Origin: Rhodospirillales bacterium
Lineage (GTDB): Bacteria > Pseudomonadota > Alphaproteobacteria > Rhodospirillales > Magnetospirillaceae
Assembly: GCA_014380005.1 (NCBI GenBank)
Contig: JACMKT010000054.1
Coordinates: 1 to 55,036 of the forward strand
Reading direction: 5' to 3'
DNA: 55,036 nucleotides
This document shows positions 3,275-18,818 of the stretch, piece by piece (the first letter of the stretch is position 1; every line of letters begins with the position of its first letter). The position numbers were made by a program, and so were the translations under genes. Below the pieces are notes generated by a model. It ran no database searches, was not told where the DNA came from, and saw only the letters and a list, made by a program, of their open reading frames with translations.

Positions 3275-4040
3275 GGGCGCCCGCTCCCGCGCTGATCTCG
3301 ACCCGACGGTGCTGGCGCAACTGAACGCCGGCACCGCCGAAACCCTGTCGCTGCCCGAATGTCTGGCGGTGGACATGGCCGCCCTCATGGCCACCGCCTT
3401 GCCCGAGCTGGATGCCGGCCCCATGGCGGCAGCGGCGGATTTGGGCATCACTCGGCGCATGGCCGCCGCCGCCCAACTGGCCCTGGACGGGCTGGGCGGC
3501 GAGGCTTTGGTGCGCTTGGCGGGGCACCGCTCCGACACCGTGCGCGGCTGGGCCGCCTATGCGGTGGGGCTGATGCCCCATCTGACCCTGGCGGAACGGC
3601 TGGTGATGATCCGCCCCCTGGCCGACGATTCCCATTTCGGCGTGCGCGAATGGGCGTGGCTGGGCATCCGTCCGCAAGTGGCGGCGGAACCGTTACTGGC
3701 TTTGGAGTTATTGGCGCCGTGGACCGCCGAGGCCTCGCCCTATTTGCGCCGCTTCGCCAGCGAAGCCACAAGACCGCGCGGCGTGTGGTGCGGCCAAATC
3801 GCCAGCCTGCGCGCCGACCCGTCGCCGGGATTGGCCGTGCTGGACCCGCTGCTGGCGGACAAAGAACGCTATGTGCAGAACTCCATCGCCAATTGGCTCA
3901 ACGACGCCGCCAAGGACCACCCCGACTGGGTGCGGGAAGTCTGCGCGCGTTGGACGGGGCAGGCGGTGCCGTATGTGCTGAAGCGGGCGTTGCGCAGTTT
4001 GAAAGAGATTCACCACCAAGACACCAAGGCACCAAGATAA
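3267..4040 (+). CDS. HEAT-repeat protein, DNA alkylation repair (AlkC/AlkD)-like
   Basis: A 257-residue all-helical protein built of HEAT-like repeats ([28 protein letters not shown]). The segment near residues 160-175 ([14 protein letters not shown]) and the [20 protein letters not shown] segment resemble AlkC/AlkD-type DNA alkylation repeat proteins, which remove alkylated bases by a DNA-bending glycosylase fold. Glycosylase activity is inferred from family only. The ATG overlaps the purD stop by 8 bases, implying coupling. The last residues (HHQDTKAPR) are encoded by the left arm of an intergenic hairpin repeat, so the native C-terminus may have been replaced. Confidence 0.8.
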
Positions 4041-4100
4041 CGAGCGGGCGGCGCCGCCATCGCCCGCACACTTCCTTGGTGCCTTGGTGTCTTGGTGGTG
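4011..4100. repeat. Long hairpin of CACCAAGR words between convergent genes
   Basis: Bases 4011-4036 and 4075-4100 are a perfect 26-bp inverted repeat built from 8-nt words (CACCAAGA, CACCAAGG). Inside it a second stem pairs 4044-4050 with 4061-4067. It covers the end of the HEAT gene, including its stop, and ends 10 bases before the end of the convergent phosphoesterase gene. It can act as a bidirectional terminator. Compare the elements at 36643 and 39511. Confidence 0.9.
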
Positions 4101-7614: not shown

Positions 7615-8676
7615 TCAATCTTCCGGTAGAATTCCGCCCGCAGCCTTACGGGGAAAGGTCAGGATAAAGCGGGTGCCGTGACCGGCAACGCTGTCCACCG
7701 CAAGCGAACCCTCCAGCGGGCCGGTGGCCAGATTGTAGACGATATGCAGGCCCAGACCGGTGCCGCCTGCGCCCCGTTTGGTGGTGAAGAACGGGTCGAA
7801 GATGCGGTTCTTATGGGCGTCGGCGATGCCCTTTCCGTCATCGGCATAGACCAGCCTGATCTGACCCGGCACCGGTTCGTCCACGGTGATGGACAGCTCG
7901 CCCGACTGACCCTGATCATAACCGTGGACGATGGAATTCATGACGAAATTGGTCAGCACCTGACTGAGCGCGCCAGGATAGCCGTCCACCTCCAGCCCCG
8001 GCGGGCAGGTGATGGTGACCTTATGGCCGGCCTGGCGCACGCGCGGGCTGAGCGATGCCAGGGTCTCGCCCATATAGGCGGCCAGATCGAAGCGGCGGCG
8101 TTCGGCGCTGGTGCGGTCCACCGCCACCTGTTTGAAGCTGCGGATCAGTGCCGCCGCCCGTTCGCAATTGCCCAGGATCAGTTGGGTGGTGTCGGACGCG
8201 GTGTCCATGTAGCGCTCGAAATCCTCGACCCCGATATCGTCGGCTTCGAACAGCGTGCGCAAATGGGCGGTGGCGTCGGCCAAATGGGAAGCGCAGGACA
8301 AGGCGATGCCCACGGGGGTGTTGATCTCATGGGCGACGCCGCCCACCAAGGCCCCCAGCGAGGCCAGCTTTTCCGCTTGGACCAGGGTTTCCTGGGCCTC
8401 GCGCAAACGGGCCAGGGCTTCCTCGGCCTCGGCCTTGCGGCGCGCCAATTCCTGATTGACCGAGGCCAACTGGTTTTGCAAACGGTCGCTGACCTTGACC
8501 AGCCGGCGCTGTTCGCGCACGGAGCGGCGATAGGCCTCGGTCAGGGTGTCGACACCCTTGAGAATGGCTTCCGGCGCCGCATGGTCCAGGGAATCGCGCA
8601 GGGCATTGGCCTCGGCGAGGACCCGTTCCTCGGCATCGAACAGGTTGAAGCCGCCCTCGGACTTCCCCACCGGCAT
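7615..8676 (-). CDS. Soluble sensor histidine kinase coupled to SiaC
   Basis: A 353-residue kinase without membrane segments. Residues about 50-105 form a long coiled coil, followed by the H-box VAHEINTP (His116), an N-box near LTNFVMNSIVHGYD, DDGKGI and GGTGLGLH, typical of HPK4-like kinases. The ATG at 8674-8676 overlaps the siaC stop by one base (TAATG), so the shorter start is chosen over the longer open frame. Having no sensory domain of its own, it probably takes its signal from a partner; SiaC is the obvious candidate by coupling (inference). Confidence 0.88.
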   Translation of the reverse strand: MPVGKSEGGFNLFDAEERVLAEANALRDSLDHAAPEAILKGVDTLTEAYRRSVREQRRLVKVSDRLQNQLASVNQELARRKAEAEEALARLREAQETLVQAEKLASLGALVGGVAHEINTPVGIALSCASHLADATAHLRTLFEADDIGVEDFERYMDTASDTTQLILGNCERAAALIRSFKQVAVDRTSAERRRFDLAAYMGETLASLSPRVRQAGHKVTITCPPGLEVDGYPGALSQVLTNFVMNSIVHGYDQGQSGELSITVDEPVPGQIRLVYADDGKGIADAHKNRIFDPFFTTKRGAGGTGLGLHIVYNLATGPLEGSLAVDSVAGHGTRFILTFPRKAAGGILPED

Positions 8677-9065
8677 TAATCCTGGGTTATCGCCAGATTG
8701 AAGGTGACGTGCTCCAGATCTTCCGAGAAGTCCTCGCCGAACTCCTTCATGGTCTCGTCGTCGGCGGCGAAGAACCAATTGACCACGATGGTGACGCCGC
8801 GCGCCGCCGCCTTGTCCATGAGCTGGAACATGTTCATCAGCGCCTTGGCGCTGGAGCTGTTGAAATAGATCAGCTCGAAATCGAAGCGCAGGGTACGGCC
8901 CGCGACCTGATCGTGCAGGAAACCTTCCAGCGCGGCGAAAATGGGGCCGAACACCGTCGAAGCGTCCTCGGGGTACGATTCACCCTTCAGCGACAACACG
9001 CCGGCGGCAAAGTCGAAATCCACTGCGGGCGAGCGCTCGGTGGCGGCGATCACTAGATTGTCCAT
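8676..9065 (-). CDS. siaC: SiaC-family (DUF1987) regulatory phosphoprotein
   Basis: A 129-residue protein of the SiaC family, STAS-like switch proteins phosphorylated by SiaB. In Pseudomonas aeruginosa unphosphorylated SiaC binds and activates the diguanylate cyclase SiaD. The diagnostic segment LIYFNSSSAKALM (residues 66-78) carries three serines where SiaC has its phospho-site (Thr68 in P. aeruginosa). Eight bases after siaB and overlapping the downstream kinase start. No siaD or siaA lies nearby, which sets this copy apart. Confidence 0.88.
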   Translation of the reverse strand: MDNLVIAATERSPAVDFDFAAGVLSLKGESYPEDASTVFGPIFAALEGFLHDQVAGRTLRFDFELIYFNSSSAKALMNMFQLMDKAAARGVTIVVNWFFAADDETMKEFGEDFSEDLEHVTFNLAITQD

Positions 9066-9073
9066 GACCCCCC

Positions 9074-9667
9074 TCAGATGGAAACTTTAAGGCAGAAAAA
9101 GTGCTTTTCAGCGTCGATGCGGTCGAAACCGAATTCGATGGGTTCGCTGGCGCGGCGCGCGATCTCGATCAGGCCGATGGTTGCGCCCCGGCTCTTTTCA
9201 TCGGGTGCTTCCCGCAGCTGTTCCTTGTAGTAGGCCTTGATCTCATCCTTGTCCATCTTCTGCAACACCTCCAGGCGGTGCCGCAACCGGGGCACGTCCT
9301 CTTCCAGGATGGTGTTCGCGCAAACGATGAAAAAGCGCCCCTGCTCGGTGCCGATGGTGACCATGCCCGACGACAATTCCACCGATTTGCCCACGGTGCC
9401 CAGCACCTTTTCCGCCGAATAGCGGATGATGTTCTGAGCCTGCTCGATGAACACCGAGAACACCTTCTTGATGGTGGTCAGGTCGGTGTCGTCCAGGGTC
9501 ATCTTCTGGCGCAGGGTATCGCCCAGGGAATACAGGATGGCCTCGGACAGATAGCCCGAGAACGAGAACAGGATGCCGCGTTCGTCCAGCATGCCTTTGA
9601 AGGCGCGATAATGCTGCGCGAGCGCTGGCTGGTCACCCTCTGGGGGCTTGTTCGCCGGGATCGTCAA
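9074..9667 (-). CDS. siaB: SiaB-family protein kinase
   Basis: A 197-residue SiaB-like kinase with a GHKL-type fold, which phosphorylates SiaC. Visible family features are ILFSFSGYLSEAILYSLGDTL near the N-terminus (about 32-52), a helix with QNIIRYSAEK holding the N-box Asn, and the ATP-lid area SRGATIGLIEIARRAS near 159-174. It starts the siaB-siaC-kinase unit. A 73-base gap without an obvious terminator separates it from the binding-protein gene upstream. Confidence 0.87.
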   Translation of the reverse strand: MTIPANKPPEGDQPALAQHYRAFKGMLDERGILFSFSGYLSEAILYSLGDTLRQKMTLDDTDLTTIKKVFSVFIEQAQNIIRYSAEKVLGTVGKSVELSSGMVTIGTEQGRFFIVCANTILEEDVPRLRHRLEVLQKMDKDEIKAYYKEQLREAPDEKSRGATIGLIEIARRASEPIEFGFDRIDAEKHFFCLKVSI

Positions 9668-9740
9668 CTGGACCTTCCTCGCGTGCCGTGCTGATCAGAT
9701 ACTTACAGCCGAACCGTGTCCGCAAGCAAGCCGGGCCGGT

Positions 9741-10493
9741 TCAACCGCCACCGTCTTCTTTCAAGAAGCCGGAGTAGCGTTCGATGATCTTGCCATACAT
9801 GCCGCTGGCGCGCAGCTTTTTGAGGCCACGATTGAAACTGTCACGCAAAGCCTCGTCCCGGAAGGCCACGTAATAGTCCGTGGGCGGGAAAATGGGGTGG
9901 AAACGCACGGCTTGCGTAGTGTCCACCTTGGACTTGACCTCGTCCTCATTGGCGAACCAGCCGAAGATGCTGCGCTCGGACACCACCACATCCACCCGGT
10001 CCAGGAACAGCAGCGTCGGCTGCACCACCTGCTTGACCTCTTCACGGTAGCGCGGATTGCTCTCTACGGCTGCCTTAAAGGCCGGTCCAAGAATCACCGT
10101 TGCCTTTTGGAAGGCGATTACCGATTTTCCGGCCAAATCCTCGGGCCGCTTGATGGTGAAATTATGCTTCGCCAGGGTGATGGCGTAATTGCGATAGGTG
10201 ATGTGGCTGTCGGAATAGAACGCCTTGACCCCCGATGACGGCTGCATGGTCATGGCGGCATCCACCAGCCCGGTGTCCAATTCCTTCATCACCCGGGCAA
10301 TGGCCATGTAACGCGGCTTCAGGGTGTGGCCTTCCAGCGCCAGCGCCTCGCGCACCACGTCGTATTCCAGGCCGCGCCATTCATCGACGATGACGTAAGG
10401 CGGCAAGGACCGCCCCACGGCGATGGTGACCTCGGCGGCATTCGCGGCAAGGGGGGCCAGCAGAATTGCGATCAGGGCGATGAGGTGCTTCAT
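9741..10493 (-). CDS. Periplasmic solute-binding protein (SBP family 3)
   Basis: A 250-residue protein with a cleavable signal peptide (hydrophobic 3-17, ANA-AE site about 19) and a family 3 extracellular solute-binding fold: VTIAVGRSLPPYVIVDEWRGLEYDV early, and a C-terminal FNRGLKKLRASGMYGKIIERY helix. Usually such proteins feed ABC importers of amino acids, but no permease is nearby. Its ATG overlaps the stop of a histidine-kinase gene (4 bases), so it may serve as a ligand-sensing subunit instead. The ligand cannot be told. Confidence 0.85.
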   Translation of the reverse strand: MKHLIALIAILLAPLAANAAEVTIAVGRSLPPYVIVDEWRGLEYDVVREALALEGHTLKPRYMAIARVMKELDTGLVDAAMTMQPSSGVKAFYSDSHITYRNYAITLAKHNFTIKRPEDLAGKSVIAFQKATVILGPAFKAAVESNPRYREEVKQVVQPTLLFLDRVDVVVSERSIFGWFANEDEVKSKVDTTQAVRFHPIFPPTDYYVAFRDEALRDSFNRGLKKLRASGMYGKIIERYSGFLKEDGGG

Positions 10494-11800
10494 GCCTTTT
10501 CCTTGTCGCGTGGGGCGCGGCGCAGCCGCACGGTGACGGTGGTGCCACAGCCCAATCGGCTGTCCACGGCGATGGAACCGCCATGCAGATCGATGATCTG
10601 GCGGACCATGTGCAGGCCGATGCCCGAGCCGGCGATGTTGTTGGTGTTGGCGGCGCGGAAGAAACGCTCGAACACGCGGGGCACGTCGCCTTCAGGAATG
10701 CCGATGCCGTGATCGCGCACATCCACGGCAATGGCGCCGTGATCGGAACGGACCGTCAGTTCCACCGGGCCGGCCTCGGAATATTTCAGCGCGTTGCCCA
10801 CCAGATTGTTGAACACCAGGGCCAGCATGCCGGGGTCACCCCAGACCGGCGGCACCTTGCCCACATTCAGGTGCAAGTCGCGGCCCGGCGTGGCGGCGCG
10901 GTGATGAGCCGCCGCCGATTCCAGCAGCGGGCCGATCTTCAACGCCCGTTCCTGCAAGACGATGCGGCCCGATTCCAACTGCTCGTCCGCCAGACAGGTG
11001 GCGATCAGATCCACCAGCCGATGCACGGCGCCGCGGATGGTCTCCAGCCGAGGCAAGGCGGCGGTGTCGGTTTTTTCCACCCGCATCATCAGCATCTGCG
11101 CCGCCGAGTCGATGATCGCCAGCGGCGTGCGGAATTCGTGGCTGACCATGGAGAGGAATTGCCGCAATTCCTGCTTGGCCTCGGTCTCGCGGGTCAGCGC
11201 CAGTTCGGCGCGGTCGCGGGCGCGGGCCAGGGCGTCGCGGCTGTCTTCCAGCTCGGCGGTACGGCTTGCCACCTTTTCTTCCAGCGACGCGTTGAGGCCG
11301 GACAATTCCTGGTTCAGCCGGGCGATGGTGGAGATGCCGCGCCACGCACGGATAGCACCCACCAGAGCAGTGAACAGCTTCTGCGCCGTCAGCTCGGATT
11401 TGCTTTTGTAATCGTTGATGTCGTGGGCCAGTACCACGTCGCGCTCGGGCGCCTCGCCGGGCTGGCCGGTGCGCAGGATGATGCGGATTTGAGTGTTGCC
11501 CAAAGTCTCGCGGATGTGGCGCACCAATTGAAGCCCGGCATCGGGGCTTTCCATCACCACGTCCAGCAGCACCACCGGAATATGGGGATGGGCTTTGATC
11601 AAATCGGCGGCTTGGGCGGCGGAATGGGCCGACAGCATCTCGAAGCCGCGTCCGTCGAAGCTGAAATCCCGCAGCAGGATGCGGGTCATGGCATGGACCT
11701 GGTCGTCGTCATCCACCACCAGCACCCGCCACGGTTCCGCCGCCGGCGTGGCAATGGCGGCGGTGCGGGCCTTCAGCGAGAGTTTGACGTCCTTAGCCAT
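10490..11800 (-). CDS. REC-histidine kinase (receiver at N-terminus)
   Basis: A 436-residue soluble protein with an N-terminal receiver (about 25-150, VLVVDDDDQVHAM, Asp80 in VVLLDVVME), a coiled coil (about 160-215), then a HisKA/HATPase kinase with FLSMVSHEFRTPL (His221), an N-box NNLVGNALKY, DHGIGI and GSGIGLHMV. A kinase carrying its own receiver ahead of the transmitter suggests a phosphorelay. It follows an OmpR-type regulator by 12 bases and overlaps the binding-protein gene by 4. No membrane helix is present, so any periplasmic signal needs a further link. Confidence 0.9.
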   Translation of the reverse strand: MAKDVKLSLKARTAAIATPAAEPWRVLVVDDDDQVHAMTRILLRDFSFDGRGFEMLSAHSAAQAADLIKAHPHIPVVLLDVVMESPDAGLQLVRHIRETLGNTQIRIILRTGQPGEAPERDVVLAHDINDYKSKSELTAQKLFTALVGAIRAWRGISTIARLNQELSGLNASLEEKVASRTAELEDSRDALARARDRAELALTRETEAKQELRQFLSMVSHEFRTPLAIIDSAAQMLMMRVEKTDTAALPRLETIRGAVHRLVDLIATCLADEQLESGRIVLQERALKIGPLLESAAAHHRAATPGRDLHLNVGKVPPVWGDPGMLALVFNNLVGNALKYSEAGPVELTVRSDHGAIAVDVRDHGIGIPEGDVPRVFERFFRAANTNNIAGSGIGLHMVRQIIDLHGGSIAVDSRLGCGTTVTVRLRRAPRDKEKA

Positions 11801-11812
11801 GGGATATGCAGC

Positions 11813-12526
11813 CTACCGCACCGCGACCGGGGCGGCGAAGGCGTAGCCGGTGCCGTGCACCGCCTCGATGGGCAGATCGTGGCCCAGCACTTCCTCGCCC
11901 TTGGAGCGCAGGCGCCGCACCATGGAATCCACCGAACGGTCGCCCATGTCCCATTCCCGCTTGCCCAGGGCGCGGAAGATGTCGGCGCGCGACACCGGCT
12001 CGCCGGGGCGGTCCACCAGCAGATTGATGAAGACCCGTTCGTTGGCGGTCAGCTTAAGGGTGGCGCCGCCCGGCGCGACCAACGCCCACGCCACCTGATC
12101 ATAGGCCCAGGAGGTGGAGGCCGGCGCGAGCGGCTGCGTCATGGGGGCGGCAGTGACCGGCTGCGCCTTCAGCCGGCGCGCCAGGGTGCGCACCTGGGCT
12201 TCCAATTCGCGCAATTCGATGGGTTTGACTAAATAGACGTCGGCGCCGATTTCCAGCCCCACCACCCGGTCCACGTTCACCCCGCGCGCGGTCAGCATGA
12301 TGATGCCGACCTCGGAATGATCGCGCAAACGCTTGGCGATGGAAAAGCCATCCTCACCCGGCAGATTGACGTCCAGAATGATGATGTCGGCGGGCCGCGC
12401 GCTTTGGGCGCGGTCCAGCGCCGGGCCGTCTTCACAACCGATCACGTCATGACCGCAGGCCGACAGGTATTCCACCAGATCGGCCCGCAGCGAAGTCTCG
12501 TCTTCCACTACCGCAATATTTGCCAT
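11813..12526 (-). CDS. OmpR/PhoB-family response regulator
   Basis: A 237-residue DNA-binding regulator with a receiver (ED at 8-9, phospho-acceptor Asp52 in ILDVNLPGEDG, Lys in VKPIELRE) and a C-terminal winged helix (LTANERVFINLLVDRPGEP, then DRSVDSMVRRLRSKGEE and IEAVHGTGYAF). ATG 12526 starts directly with the first receiver strand; an upstream in-frame start would add 12 residues without similarity. First gene of the minus-strand signalling cluster and the likely partner of the adjacent REC-kinase. Confidence 0.92.
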   Translation of the reverse strand: MANIAVVEDETSLRADLVEYLSACGHDVIGCEDGPALDRAQSARPADIIILDVNLPGEDGFSIAKRLRDHSEVGIIMLTARGVNVDRVVGLEIGADVYLVKPIELRELEAQVRTLARRLKAQPVTAAPMTQPLAPASTSWAYDQVAWALVAPGGATLKLTANERVFINLLVDRPGEPVSRADIFRALGKREWDMGDRSVDSMVRRLRSKGEEVLGHDLPIEAVHGTGYAFAAPVAVR

Positions 12527-12665: not shown

Positions 12666-12770
12666 TGTCATTTCGAACGAGCCGCAGGCGAGGAGAAATC
12701 TCGCTTCCGCGCTGACGGTTTTTCCGCTGAGGCGAGATTTCTCCTCAGCTTCGCTTCGTTCGAAATGACA
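12666..12770. repeat. 105-bp hairpin repeat of the GTCATTTCGAACGA type
   Basis: A perfect 15-bp outer stem (12666-12680 with 12756-12770) and a perfect 15-bp inner stem (12690-12704 with 12732-12746). The outer arm ends two bases before the stop of the DnaA-domain gene. This word family (TCATTTCGA...GAGAAATCTC) recurs in many bacterial genomes as intergenic repeats (from memory). It may end transcription of the DnaA-like gene. Confidence 0.9.
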
Positions 12771-17719: not shown

Positions 17720-18715
17720 CTAAACCCCCGCCGCCTCGCGCTTGGCCTTGATCTTGGCCCGGGCCTCCACCAGTTCGCGACCCATTTTGCGGATGTCGTG
17801 CAGCAGGGTTTCCACCACCAGGATGACCAGATCGGGGGTGCGGTTGAACTGGGCCTTCAGCGCCGCTTTGGGGATGACCAGACAGACGCTGTCCTCGGCG
17901 GCTTCGGCGGCGGCCATGCGGGGGTGGTCGTCGATCAGGGCCATTTCGCCGAACACGCCATTGGCGCCGATCTCGCCCAGGGGCACCTTGGCGCCGCCCA
18001 CTTCCTTGACGATGAGGATGCGGCCCTTCTCCACCACATAGGCCTCGTCGCCGCCATCGCCCTCGCTGAAGATGGCCTCGCCGGCCTTGAAGTGCTTGCG
18101 TGAGGTCTTGACGGCGCCCTCGGGCTTCGCCGGCGCGGGCTCCTCCTTCTTGAGGACGCGGCGCAAGGTGGGCTGAACGCTGCCCGGCGGCACGTCCACC
18201 AGCGGCGGCGGTTTGGGCAAGGGCGCATTGACCCGGCGTTCCATGCCCTCGGGCACCACGCGGTCCACGGTGCGGCGGCACGGCCCCACATAATCGGCGC
18301 TGCGCACGAACGGGCGCGGATTGACTAGGGCGTTGCGCACGCGGCGGAACAGGGAATCGGCAGAGACCGGCTTGACCAGGAATTCGTTGACCCCGGCGTT
18401 GCGCGCCTCGATCACCTTTTCCATCTCGGCCATGCCCGAGATCATGACGATGGGCACGTCCACGCAGGTGACTTCCTCACCGGCGCGGAGGATGCGGGTG
18501 AAGGCGACGCCGTCCATGGGTTCCATGTCGTGGTCCACCAGCACCAGATCCACCTTCTGGTCGCGCAGCAGCAGGACTCCGGCGGCGCCGTCCCCGGCCT
18601 CAGCCACGTTGCGCACGCCAAAGGAAAACAGGGCGGATTTGATGAAGGACCGCGCATAGCGGCTGTCGTCGATGATCAGCACAGTGACCGCGCTGAGGTC
18701 GATATCGACGATCAT
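17720..18715 (-). CDS. Receiver plus cyclic-nucleotide-binding protein
   Basis: A 331-residue protein: receiver domain (about 10-125, IIDDSRYARSFIKSA, Asp61 in LVLVDHDMEPMDG, Lys in LVKPVSAD), a proline-rich linker (about 160-200) and a cNMP-binding domain (about 205-320) with phosphate-cassette FGEMALIDDHPRMA (Arg266). No DNA-binding or enzymatic output follows; a short basic helix ends it. It may integrate phosphorylation and cAMP/cGMP by protein contact. ATG 18715 is best spaced from the GAGGGGGG site; ATG 18721 lies two codons earlier. Confidence 0.87.
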   Translation of the reverse strand: MIVDIDLSAVTVLIIDDSRYARSFIKSALFSFGVRNVAEAGDGAAGVLLLRDQKVDLVLVDHDMEPMDGVAFTRILRAGEEVTCVDVPIVMISGMAEMEKVIEARNAGVNEFLVKPVSADSLFRRVRNALVNPRPFVRSADYVGPCRRTVDRVVPEGMERRVNAPLPKPPPLVDVPPGSVQPTLRRVLKKEEPAPAKPEGAVKTSRKHFKAGEAIFSEGDGGDEAYVVEKGRILIVKEVGGAKVPLGEIGANGVFGEMALIDDHPRMAAAEAAEDSVCLVIPKAALKAQFNRTPDLVILVVETLLHDIRKMGRELVEARAKIKAKREAAGV

Positions 18716-18818
18716 GTCCATCCCCCCTCGCCGCTTGCGCACATGCACGCTCGTGTAGTTCTAAACCACCATGGCCCATGAACCAAGGCCCTAAGCTGTA
18801 TACGGAAGTTCCGTTCGC

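What the first reader, a model, noticed from the sequence alone, without database searches (positions are those of the whole stretch)
7615..12526. Six-gene signalling cluster joining a periplasmic binding protein, two kinases and a SiaB/SiaC switch
Seen: on one strand lie OmpR-type regulator, REC-histidine kinase (12-base gap), solute-binding protein (4-base overlap), SiaB (73-base gap), SiaC (8-base gap) and soluble histidine kinase (1-base overlap). Known: SiaB phosphorylates SiaC, which in Pseudomonas controls a diguanylate cyclase. Here there is neither siaA nor siaD; a histidine kinase takes that place. Inference: a ligand bound in the periplasm sets a phosphorelay whose switch protein controls a second kinase. 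This combination is the best candidate in the window for an undescribed system.
Basis: partly seen in the sequence, partly recalled or inferred. Interest (0 to 1): 0.75.

Follow-up and report, generated by a model that had tools for sequence, protein, structure and literature searches.

The report
Phospho-switch controlling a histidine kinase
A protein switch known from Pseudomonas, where it turns on a biofilm-signal enzyme, seems in these Magnetospirillum-like bacteria to grip the stem of a histidine kinase instead, and the same grip site sits on several unrelated enzymes, which suggests a plug-in control module.

Summary
The six genes are there as described. The conserved unit is five genes (RR, REC-HK, SiaB, SiaC, HK2); the binding-protein gene is in 5 of 52 such loci, so a periplasmic ligand as trigger is not supported. 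HK2 carries KVSDRLQ, the motif that SiaC grips on the cyclase SiaD in structure 7E6G, in a helix that also holds its phospho-acceptor His116. A stalk profile built without kinases finds HK2 at E 8e-13. The stalk occurs in 52 of 67 SiaC-bearing but 1 of 331 SiaC-less genomes, and once in this genome, on HK2. In 170 SiaC loci the next gene is a kinase, GGDEF, HD-GYP or class III cyclase in 142, 128 of them with the motif. A SiaA-like phosphatase lies on another contig beside a REC-PAS-GGDEF whose receiver is 70% identical to that of REC-HK. Best reading: SiaA and SiaB set SiaC phosphorylation; free SiaC clamps HK2; HK2 feeds receivers driving an OmpR regulator and c-di-GMP. Nothing biochemical was tested. 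New variant of a known kind.

The parts
11813..12526 (-). OmpR-type response regulator, receiver Asp52
   Evidence: PF00072 1.5e-20, PF00486 1.1e-12; D52
10490..11800 (-). REC-HK: receiver (Asp80), HisKA (His221), HATPase; no hydrophobic segment
9741..10493 (-). Family-3 solute-binding protein with signal peptide; occasional insert, 5 of 52 loci
   Evidence: PF00497 1.4e-10; GlnPQ-like in the PDB, 4.9e-11
9074..9667 (-). SiaB-family kinase; Glu75 aligns near the catalytic Glu of SiaB
   Evidence: NF038262 209.1 bits; 2.1e-18 to solved SiaB
8676..9065 (-). SiaC; Ser70 at the place of Thr68
   Evidence: PF09345 1.2e-40; 3e-20 to solved SiaC
7615..8676 (-). HK2: stalk plus histidine kinase (His116), SiaC target proposed
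   Evidence: PF02518 5.9e-22; invariant residues; model
8467..8508 (-). Proposed SiaC-binding motif RRLVKVSDRLQNQL, HK2 residues 57-70
   Evidence: profile match 8431-8586

Best explanation
It is a Sia-type partner switch whose output enzyme is a histidine kinase. SiaB phosphorylates SiaC (on Ser70, as expected from Thr68 of Pseudomonas) and an unlinked membrane-bound SiaA-like PP2C removes the phosphate, so envelope conditions sensed by SiaA set how much free SiaC there is. Free SiaC grips the KVSDRLQ motif on the dimeric N-terminal coiled coil of HK2, as it grips the stalk of SiaD, and fixes the helix register that runs straight into the phospho-acceptor helix; this switches HK2, most likely on. 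HK2 then phosphorylates the closely related receivers of REC-HK, which passes the signal to the OmpR-type regulator, and of an unlinked REC-PAS-GGDEF, so that transcription and c-di-GMP respond together. Shown by sequence: gene order, domains, stalk motif, its co-occurrence with SiaC, the SiaA-like candidate, the receiver pair, intact catalytic residues. Inferred: binding, its sign, the order of phosphotransfer and the input.
For: SiaC Thr68 hydrogen-bonds SiaD Ser82 and Gln86 (passages of PMC8457831); the 7E6G SiaD chain reads EKVARISDRYQQMMRDLN, HK2 reads RRLVKVSDRLQNQL. A stalk HMM from 80 non-HK stalks recovers 53 of 55 SiaC-adjacent kinases, HK2 at 48.2 bits, E 8.1e-13. Strict motif in 128 of 142 SiaC-adjacent outputs against 8 of 92 other output-domain ORFs of the same loci. 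Stalk in 37 of 41 SiaC-bearing and 0 of 20 SiaC-less relatives, and in 52 of 67 against 1 of 331 in the phylum sample. One SiaC and one stalk in this genome. S63, D64, R65 and H116 invariant in 32 aligned HK2 sequences. Model with one helix 35-144. REC-HK in 48 and RR in 46 of 52 window-type loci, a related REC in 3 and the RR in 1 of 87 loci of other types. SiaA-like PP2C domain of 195 bits or more in 40 of 40 relatives with a full SiaC and 0 of 20 without (counted by eye). Of 117 PP2C-like ORFs in the SiaC loci 115 match C251 best among the 7 own PP2Cs. Receiver 70% identical on C251, beside the SiaA-like gene.
Against: No binding, phosphorylation or phosphotransfer was measured. HK2 has one motif copy, SiaD two. 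Similarity to SiaD itself is short: profile A2 did not find SiaD in the PDB at E 1 and missed the SiaD-type loci. The SiaA-like protein scores 236 bits against an equivalog cut-off of 700. The bin shows 6.25% contamination, so contig C251 could be foreign, though G003, G006 and G007 have the same pair. REC-GGDEF is beside the SiaA-like gene in 4 of 9 such loci looked at and in the HK2 locus in 11 of 52; one window-type locus (L066) shows no related receiver at all. Whether SiaC activates or inhibits HK2 is open.
Confidence: 0.68

Rival explanations
1. SiaC binds HK2 but the flow is reversed or inhibitory: HK2 sequesters SiaC, or free SiaC keeps HK2 off or in phosphatase mode, and phosphorylation of SiaC releases it.
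For: The stalk evidence speaks for contact only, not for its sign.
Against: In the studied case unphosphorylated SiaC activates its partner (passages of PMC8457831); output enzymes with unrelated catalytic parts all sit directly after siaC.
Confidence: 0.17
2. One reading: a ligand caught by the periplasmic binding protein starts the relay, and SiaC is a later step.
For: The gene overlaps REC-HK by 4 bases and has a signal peptide-like start.
Against: Present in 5 of 52 loci; no membrane-spanning protein in the cluster; no permease gene in the cluster.
Confidence: 0.05
3. The genes share an operon without contact: RR and REC-HK are one two-component pair, SiaB/SiaC act on an unknown target, and HK2 is an orphan kinase with a coiled coil that merely looks alike.
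For: The motif is short, and coiled coils resemble each other; HK2 is only one of many kinases of the genome.
Against: Profile made without kinases finds HK2 at 8.1e-13; stalk all but absent from genomes without SiaC; no second stalk in this genome for SiaC to act on.
Confidence: 0.1

Closest known systems
SiaABCD of Pseudomonas aeruginosa
   Same: SiaB kinase next to SiaC; a phosphorylatable residue at the place of Thr68; output gene follows siaC; output carries the SiaC-binding motif; a SiaA-like PP2C is in the genome
   Different: Output is a histidine kinase, not the GGDEF cyclase SiaD; one motif instead of two; SiaA-like gene unlinked; an RR and a REC-HK are added
SiaC loci with class III cyclase or GAF/HD-GYP outputs (seen here; no paper found in the searches listed)
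   Same: SiaB-SiaC followed by a stalk-bearing enzyme
   Different: Unrelated catalytic part; stalk mostly SDRxE rather than SDRxQ
HptB-HsbR-HsbA-HsbD and Bgr partner switches (named in PMC8457831, passage)
   Same: A STAS-domain partner controls an enzyme by partner switching
   Different: STAS proper, not the SiaC family; the controlled enzyme is a diguanylate cyclase
slr1658/slr1659-type partner switch
   Same: Another kinase/STAS/PP2C trio, present in this genome on contig C114
   Different: Different kinase and STAS subfamilies; no target enzyme was looked for

Membership tests
SiaC family (PF09345) | Pfam match over the curated cut-off | tested here: met
   138.4 bits against 24.5; 3e-20 to solved SiaC
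SiaC equivalog (NF038265) | score over 150 bits | tested here: not met
   98.2 bits: a family member, not the biofilm SiaC itself
SiaB-family kinase (NF038262) | score over 85 bits | tested here: met
   209.1 bits; the SiaB equivalog NF038264 is not met, 112 against 225
SiaABCD system | siaA in the operon | tested here: not met
   absent from the cluster; SiaA-like PP2C on contig C251, 236 bits against the equivalog cut-off 700
SiaABCD system | output enzyme is a GGDEF cyclase | tested here: not met
   HK2 is a HATPase_c kinase
SiaABCD system | output carries the SiaC-binding stalk motif | tested here: met
   HK2 found by a stalk profile made without kinases, E 8.1e-13
SiaABCD system | SiaB phosphorylates SiaC and this blocks binding | not testable with these tools
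   contact and acceptor residues kept; no assay possible
Two-component signalling | phospho-acceptor His, ATP-binding residues, receiver Asp | tested here: met
   HK2 H116, N243, N247, D279, G307, G309 invariant in 32; receiver Asp80 and Asp52 located in the sequences
Binding-protein-dependent transmembrane sensor kinase | kinase with a membrane-spanning sensor | tested here: not met
   no hydrophobic segment in HK2 or REC-HK

The most novel reading that the evidence does not exclude
SiaC is a general plug and the SDRx(Q/E) coiled-coil stalk its portable socket: the same socket has been put on histidine kinases (HK2 and, with variant motifs, at least two unlike kinases, L167 and L214), diguanylate cyclases, class III nucleotide cyclases and HD-GYP proteins, so that one Ser/Thr partner switch can drive His-Asp relays, c-di-GMP or cyclic nucleotides. 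In the window it gates a histidine kinase without a sensor domain of its own.
Probability: 0.75. Interest if true: 0.72.

Novelty: new variant of a known kind. Interest (0 to 1): 0.62.

Why it matters
It predicts a direct, testable link between Ser/Thr partner switching and two-component signalling: a histidine kinase whose input is a phospho-switch protein rather than a sensor domain. It also gives SiaC (DUF1987) proteins, whose general role was only suggested (PMC8457831, passage), a recognisable target motif, so the target of a SiaC gene can often be predicted from sequence, and it shows a natural modular part by which unrelated enzymes come under one switch.

Tried and rejected
PDB search with the first 102 residues of HK2 found nothing useful, and profile A2 did not find SiaD; the link to SiaD rests on the SDRxQ core, the published contacts and the profile made without kinases.

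The binding protein as sensor was dropped on its patchy presence. The C114 PP2C (beside an slr1658/slr1659 pair) as the SiaA partner was rejected: 63 bits against 237 for C251 with the SiaA model. Of three own PP2Cs scanned C251 is far ahead; the whole-genome search agrees (235 bits, next own match 65).

Rows, biases and limits. The 170 loci exclude only those with an identical last 100 SiaC residues, so close relatives remain. They mix three samples: relatives, 80 named loci that are the best 80 of 376 confirmed, and a phylum sample. By sample: in the phylum part, 77 loci, the next gene is GGDEF in 23, HD-GYP in 22, cyclase in 7, PP2C in 5, kinase in 3 and unrecognised in 17; so the 55 kinases come mostly from the window's wider kin, and the 3 in the phylum part are not of the HK2 type. 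23 loci in all had no recognised next gene (short contigs, lone SiaC genes, other gene orders). Of the 55, L212 has a kinase without stalk (a stalk-bearing HD-GYP lies nearby) and L047 (G021) has its HK2 split over two frames; these two are the ones without a stalk segment. L167, L212 and L214 were left out of the 52 window-type loci, L212 out of the tree. The 92 control ORFs come from the same SiaC loci; of the 8 with the motif, and of the 18 non-adjacent hits, some (L142, L147, L149) are the next gene of loci dropped as duplicates, two (L047, L101) are the front piece of the split HK2, L040 and L130 are one gene twice, and others may be further SiaC targets. Non-adjacent HK, HD-GYP and cyclase carriers are listed under noticed. 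Of the 15 SiaC-bearing genomes without a stalk hit, 7 are SiaD-type, the rest partial genes, loci with PP2C or no recognised next gene, and one HD-GYP. The one stalk hit without SiaC is G137, 22 bits, E 5.3e-4. Fisher tests ignore shared ancestry, and some rows of A2 come from the genomes tested. The tree is a quick one with long branches flagged; its root is unknown. A first comparison, 114 of 114 PP2Cs best matched by C251, had found its PP2Cs with seeds from C251 and C114 only; repeated with all seven own PP2Cs as seeds it gives 115 of 117, or 98 of 100 in the non-redundant loci, exceptions L072 and L125.

Literature: searches listed no paper on a SiaC-controlled histidine kinase; the library lacks most subscription papers and preprints, and the EMBO J 2020 SiaABCD paper was not held (its DOI was recalled).
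Full report
What is there. Pfam and NCBIfam give REC plus Trans_reg_C; REC-HisKA-HATPase; a family-3 solute-binding protein; a DUF6272/SiaB-family kinase; SiaC; and a HATPase kinase whose HisKA match is below threshold. Apart from the start of the binding protein no product has a hydrophobic segment. Simple scans show nothing that divides the cluster. The genome has one SiaC.

What is conserved. SiaC occurs in 41 of 61 related genomes, one of them a partial match below the cut-off. RR, REC-HK, SiaB, SiaC, HK2 stand together in 13 of 13 genomes of the window's genus and in 10 of the 18 other SiaC-bearing family members; of the other 8, five keep SiaB-SiaC-HK2 with RR or REC-HK missing, moved or turned round, two (G031, G035) have a canonical SiaC-SiaD pair, one has only the partial SiaC. 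The binding protein is inserted in 5 of 52 window-type loci: the window, three same-genus genomes and one other genus. Azospirillum-type loci (15, one labelled Roseomonas) keep HK2 with RR and REC-HK close by, 14 of them with a PP2C too. Named hosts of the HK2 type include Magnetospirillum, Paramagnetospirillum, Phaeospirillum, Terasakiella and Azospirillum.

The receptor stalk. In the SiaC-SiaD structure SiaC Thr68 reaches between two stalk helices to Ser82 and Gln86, with Arg80, Ile81, Asp83, Arg84 and others in contact, and phosphorylation of Thr68 abolishes binding (PMC8457831, passages). That SiaD chain, 7e6g_A, reads EKVARISDRYQQMMRDLN. HK2 reads RRLVKVSDRLQNQL at residues 57-70. The window's SiaC keeps Tyr67, Asn69 and Ser71, invariant in 14 diverse SiaCs, and has Ser70 where Pseudomonas has Thr68. 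Ser63, Asp64 and Arg65 are invariant in 32 aligned HK2 sequences, as is His116. An AlphaFold2 monomer model (mean pLDDT 84.4, pTM 0.55) puts motif and His116 in one helix, 35-144, after a short helix 12-28; SiaD likewise has short N-terminal helices packed against its long stalk.

Is the stalk more than a coiled coil? Four tests say yes. (1) A profile from 80 stalks of GGDEF, cyclase and HD-GYP proteins, no kinases, recovers 53 of 55 SiaC-adjacent kinases, the window's at E 8.1e-13, with 18 further hits among 20504 ORFs. (2) The strict motif is in 128 of 142 SiaC-adjacent outputs and in 8 of 92 other output-domain ORFs of the same loci. (3) Profile A2 hits 37 of 41 SiaC-bearing and 0 of 20 SiaC-less relatives, and 52 of 67 against 1 of 331 in a phylum-wide sample. 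(4) In this genome it hits HK2 alone. Against: A2 does not reach SiaD itself in the PDB.

One plug, several enzymes. In 170 SiaC loci the next gene is a kinase in 55, GGDEF in 40, GAF/HD-GYP in 27, class III cyclase in 20, PP2C in 5 and unrecognised in 23 (Pfam check of single examples). In the phylum part alone, 77 loci, the kinase number is 3 and none is of the HK2 type: the HK2 type belongs to the window's wider kin. On a SiaB+SiaC tree of 119 loci the output type changes 13 times, least possible 3, the kinase type 4 times with at least 3 forced by starred branches. L167 and L214 are kinases whose core, by reading, differs from HK2 and whose stalk motif is a variant, GDLQQ and SDLLQ. The output end has been exchanged repeatedly on a constant stalk.

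Upstream. The own genome has seven SpoIIE/PP2C genes. One, on contig C251, matches the SiaA model at 236 bits, next own match 65. In the relatives a PP2C domain with 195 bits or more in that model is present in 40 of 40 genomes with a full SiaC and 0 of 20 without (counted by eye; G017, without SiaC, has a strong match to the sensor half only). Of 117 PP2C-like ORFs within the SiaC loci, 115 match C251 best among the seven. It has two hydrophobic regions and a PP2C domain, fit for a membrane sensor; Pseudomonas SiaA is reported to sense membrane perturbation (PMC12834913, passages).

Downstream. Divergent to the C251 phosphatase lies a REC-PAS-GGDEF whose receiver is 70% identical to that of REC-HK; a hybrid kinase on C125 has 58%, the other hits are at 38% or less. 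The pair recurs in G003, G006 and G007 (4 of 9 SiaA-like loci looked at), and in 11 of 52 window-type loci a REC-GGDEF sits in the HK2 cluster itself. Window-type loci carry REC-HK in 48, RR in 46 and some related receiver in 51 of 52; the 87 loci of other types carry a related receiver in 3 and the RR in 1. The simplest wiring is SiaA/SiaB, SiaC, HK2, then the shared receivers.

Limits. Everything rests on sequence, co-occurrence and one monomer model. The direction of the SiaC effect, the phosphotransfer order and the input are inferred. Membership in SiaABCD proper is not claimed: siaA in the operon and a GGDEF output are not met. That it works like SiaABCD is the claim.

Print status. The eLife authors suggest that DUF1987 proteins commonly modulate adjacent proteins (passage), and an mBio survey proposes merged PP2C/STAS and c-di-GMP pathways in Campylobacterota (section 10 read). 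Eight full-text searches listed no SiaC-controlled histidine kinase.

Noticed in passing
G000:C114 (L073:1032-3740): A second partner-switch set in a row: slr1658-like HATPase (227.8 bits, cut-off 200), slr1659-like STAS and a membrane PP2C.
   Followed up: partly
G000:C125 (L292, L301): A 989-aa hybrid kinase frame whose receiver is 58% identical to that of the window's REC-HK, a possible third HK2 substrate.
   Followed up: no
window 12666-12770: 46-base imperfect inverted repeat (85% complementary, 13 bases between arms) upstream of the RR gene, like an interspersed palindromic element; an 18-base probe with 3 mismatches finds no further copy in the window.
   Followed up: partly
window 4014-4097: Face-to-face short repeats of the type CACCAAGGCACCAAG, four matches here; 5 in the window against 0.24 expected.
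   Followed up: no
L040/L130, L041, L046, L063, L133, L212, L227, L243: Stalk-bearing kinases, cyclases and an HD-GYP near but not next to siaC, some on the other strand: candidate further SiaC targets.
   Followed up: partly
window 17720-18748: Response regulator with a receiver and, by reading only, a cyclic-nucleotide-binding part, minus strand.
   Followed up: no
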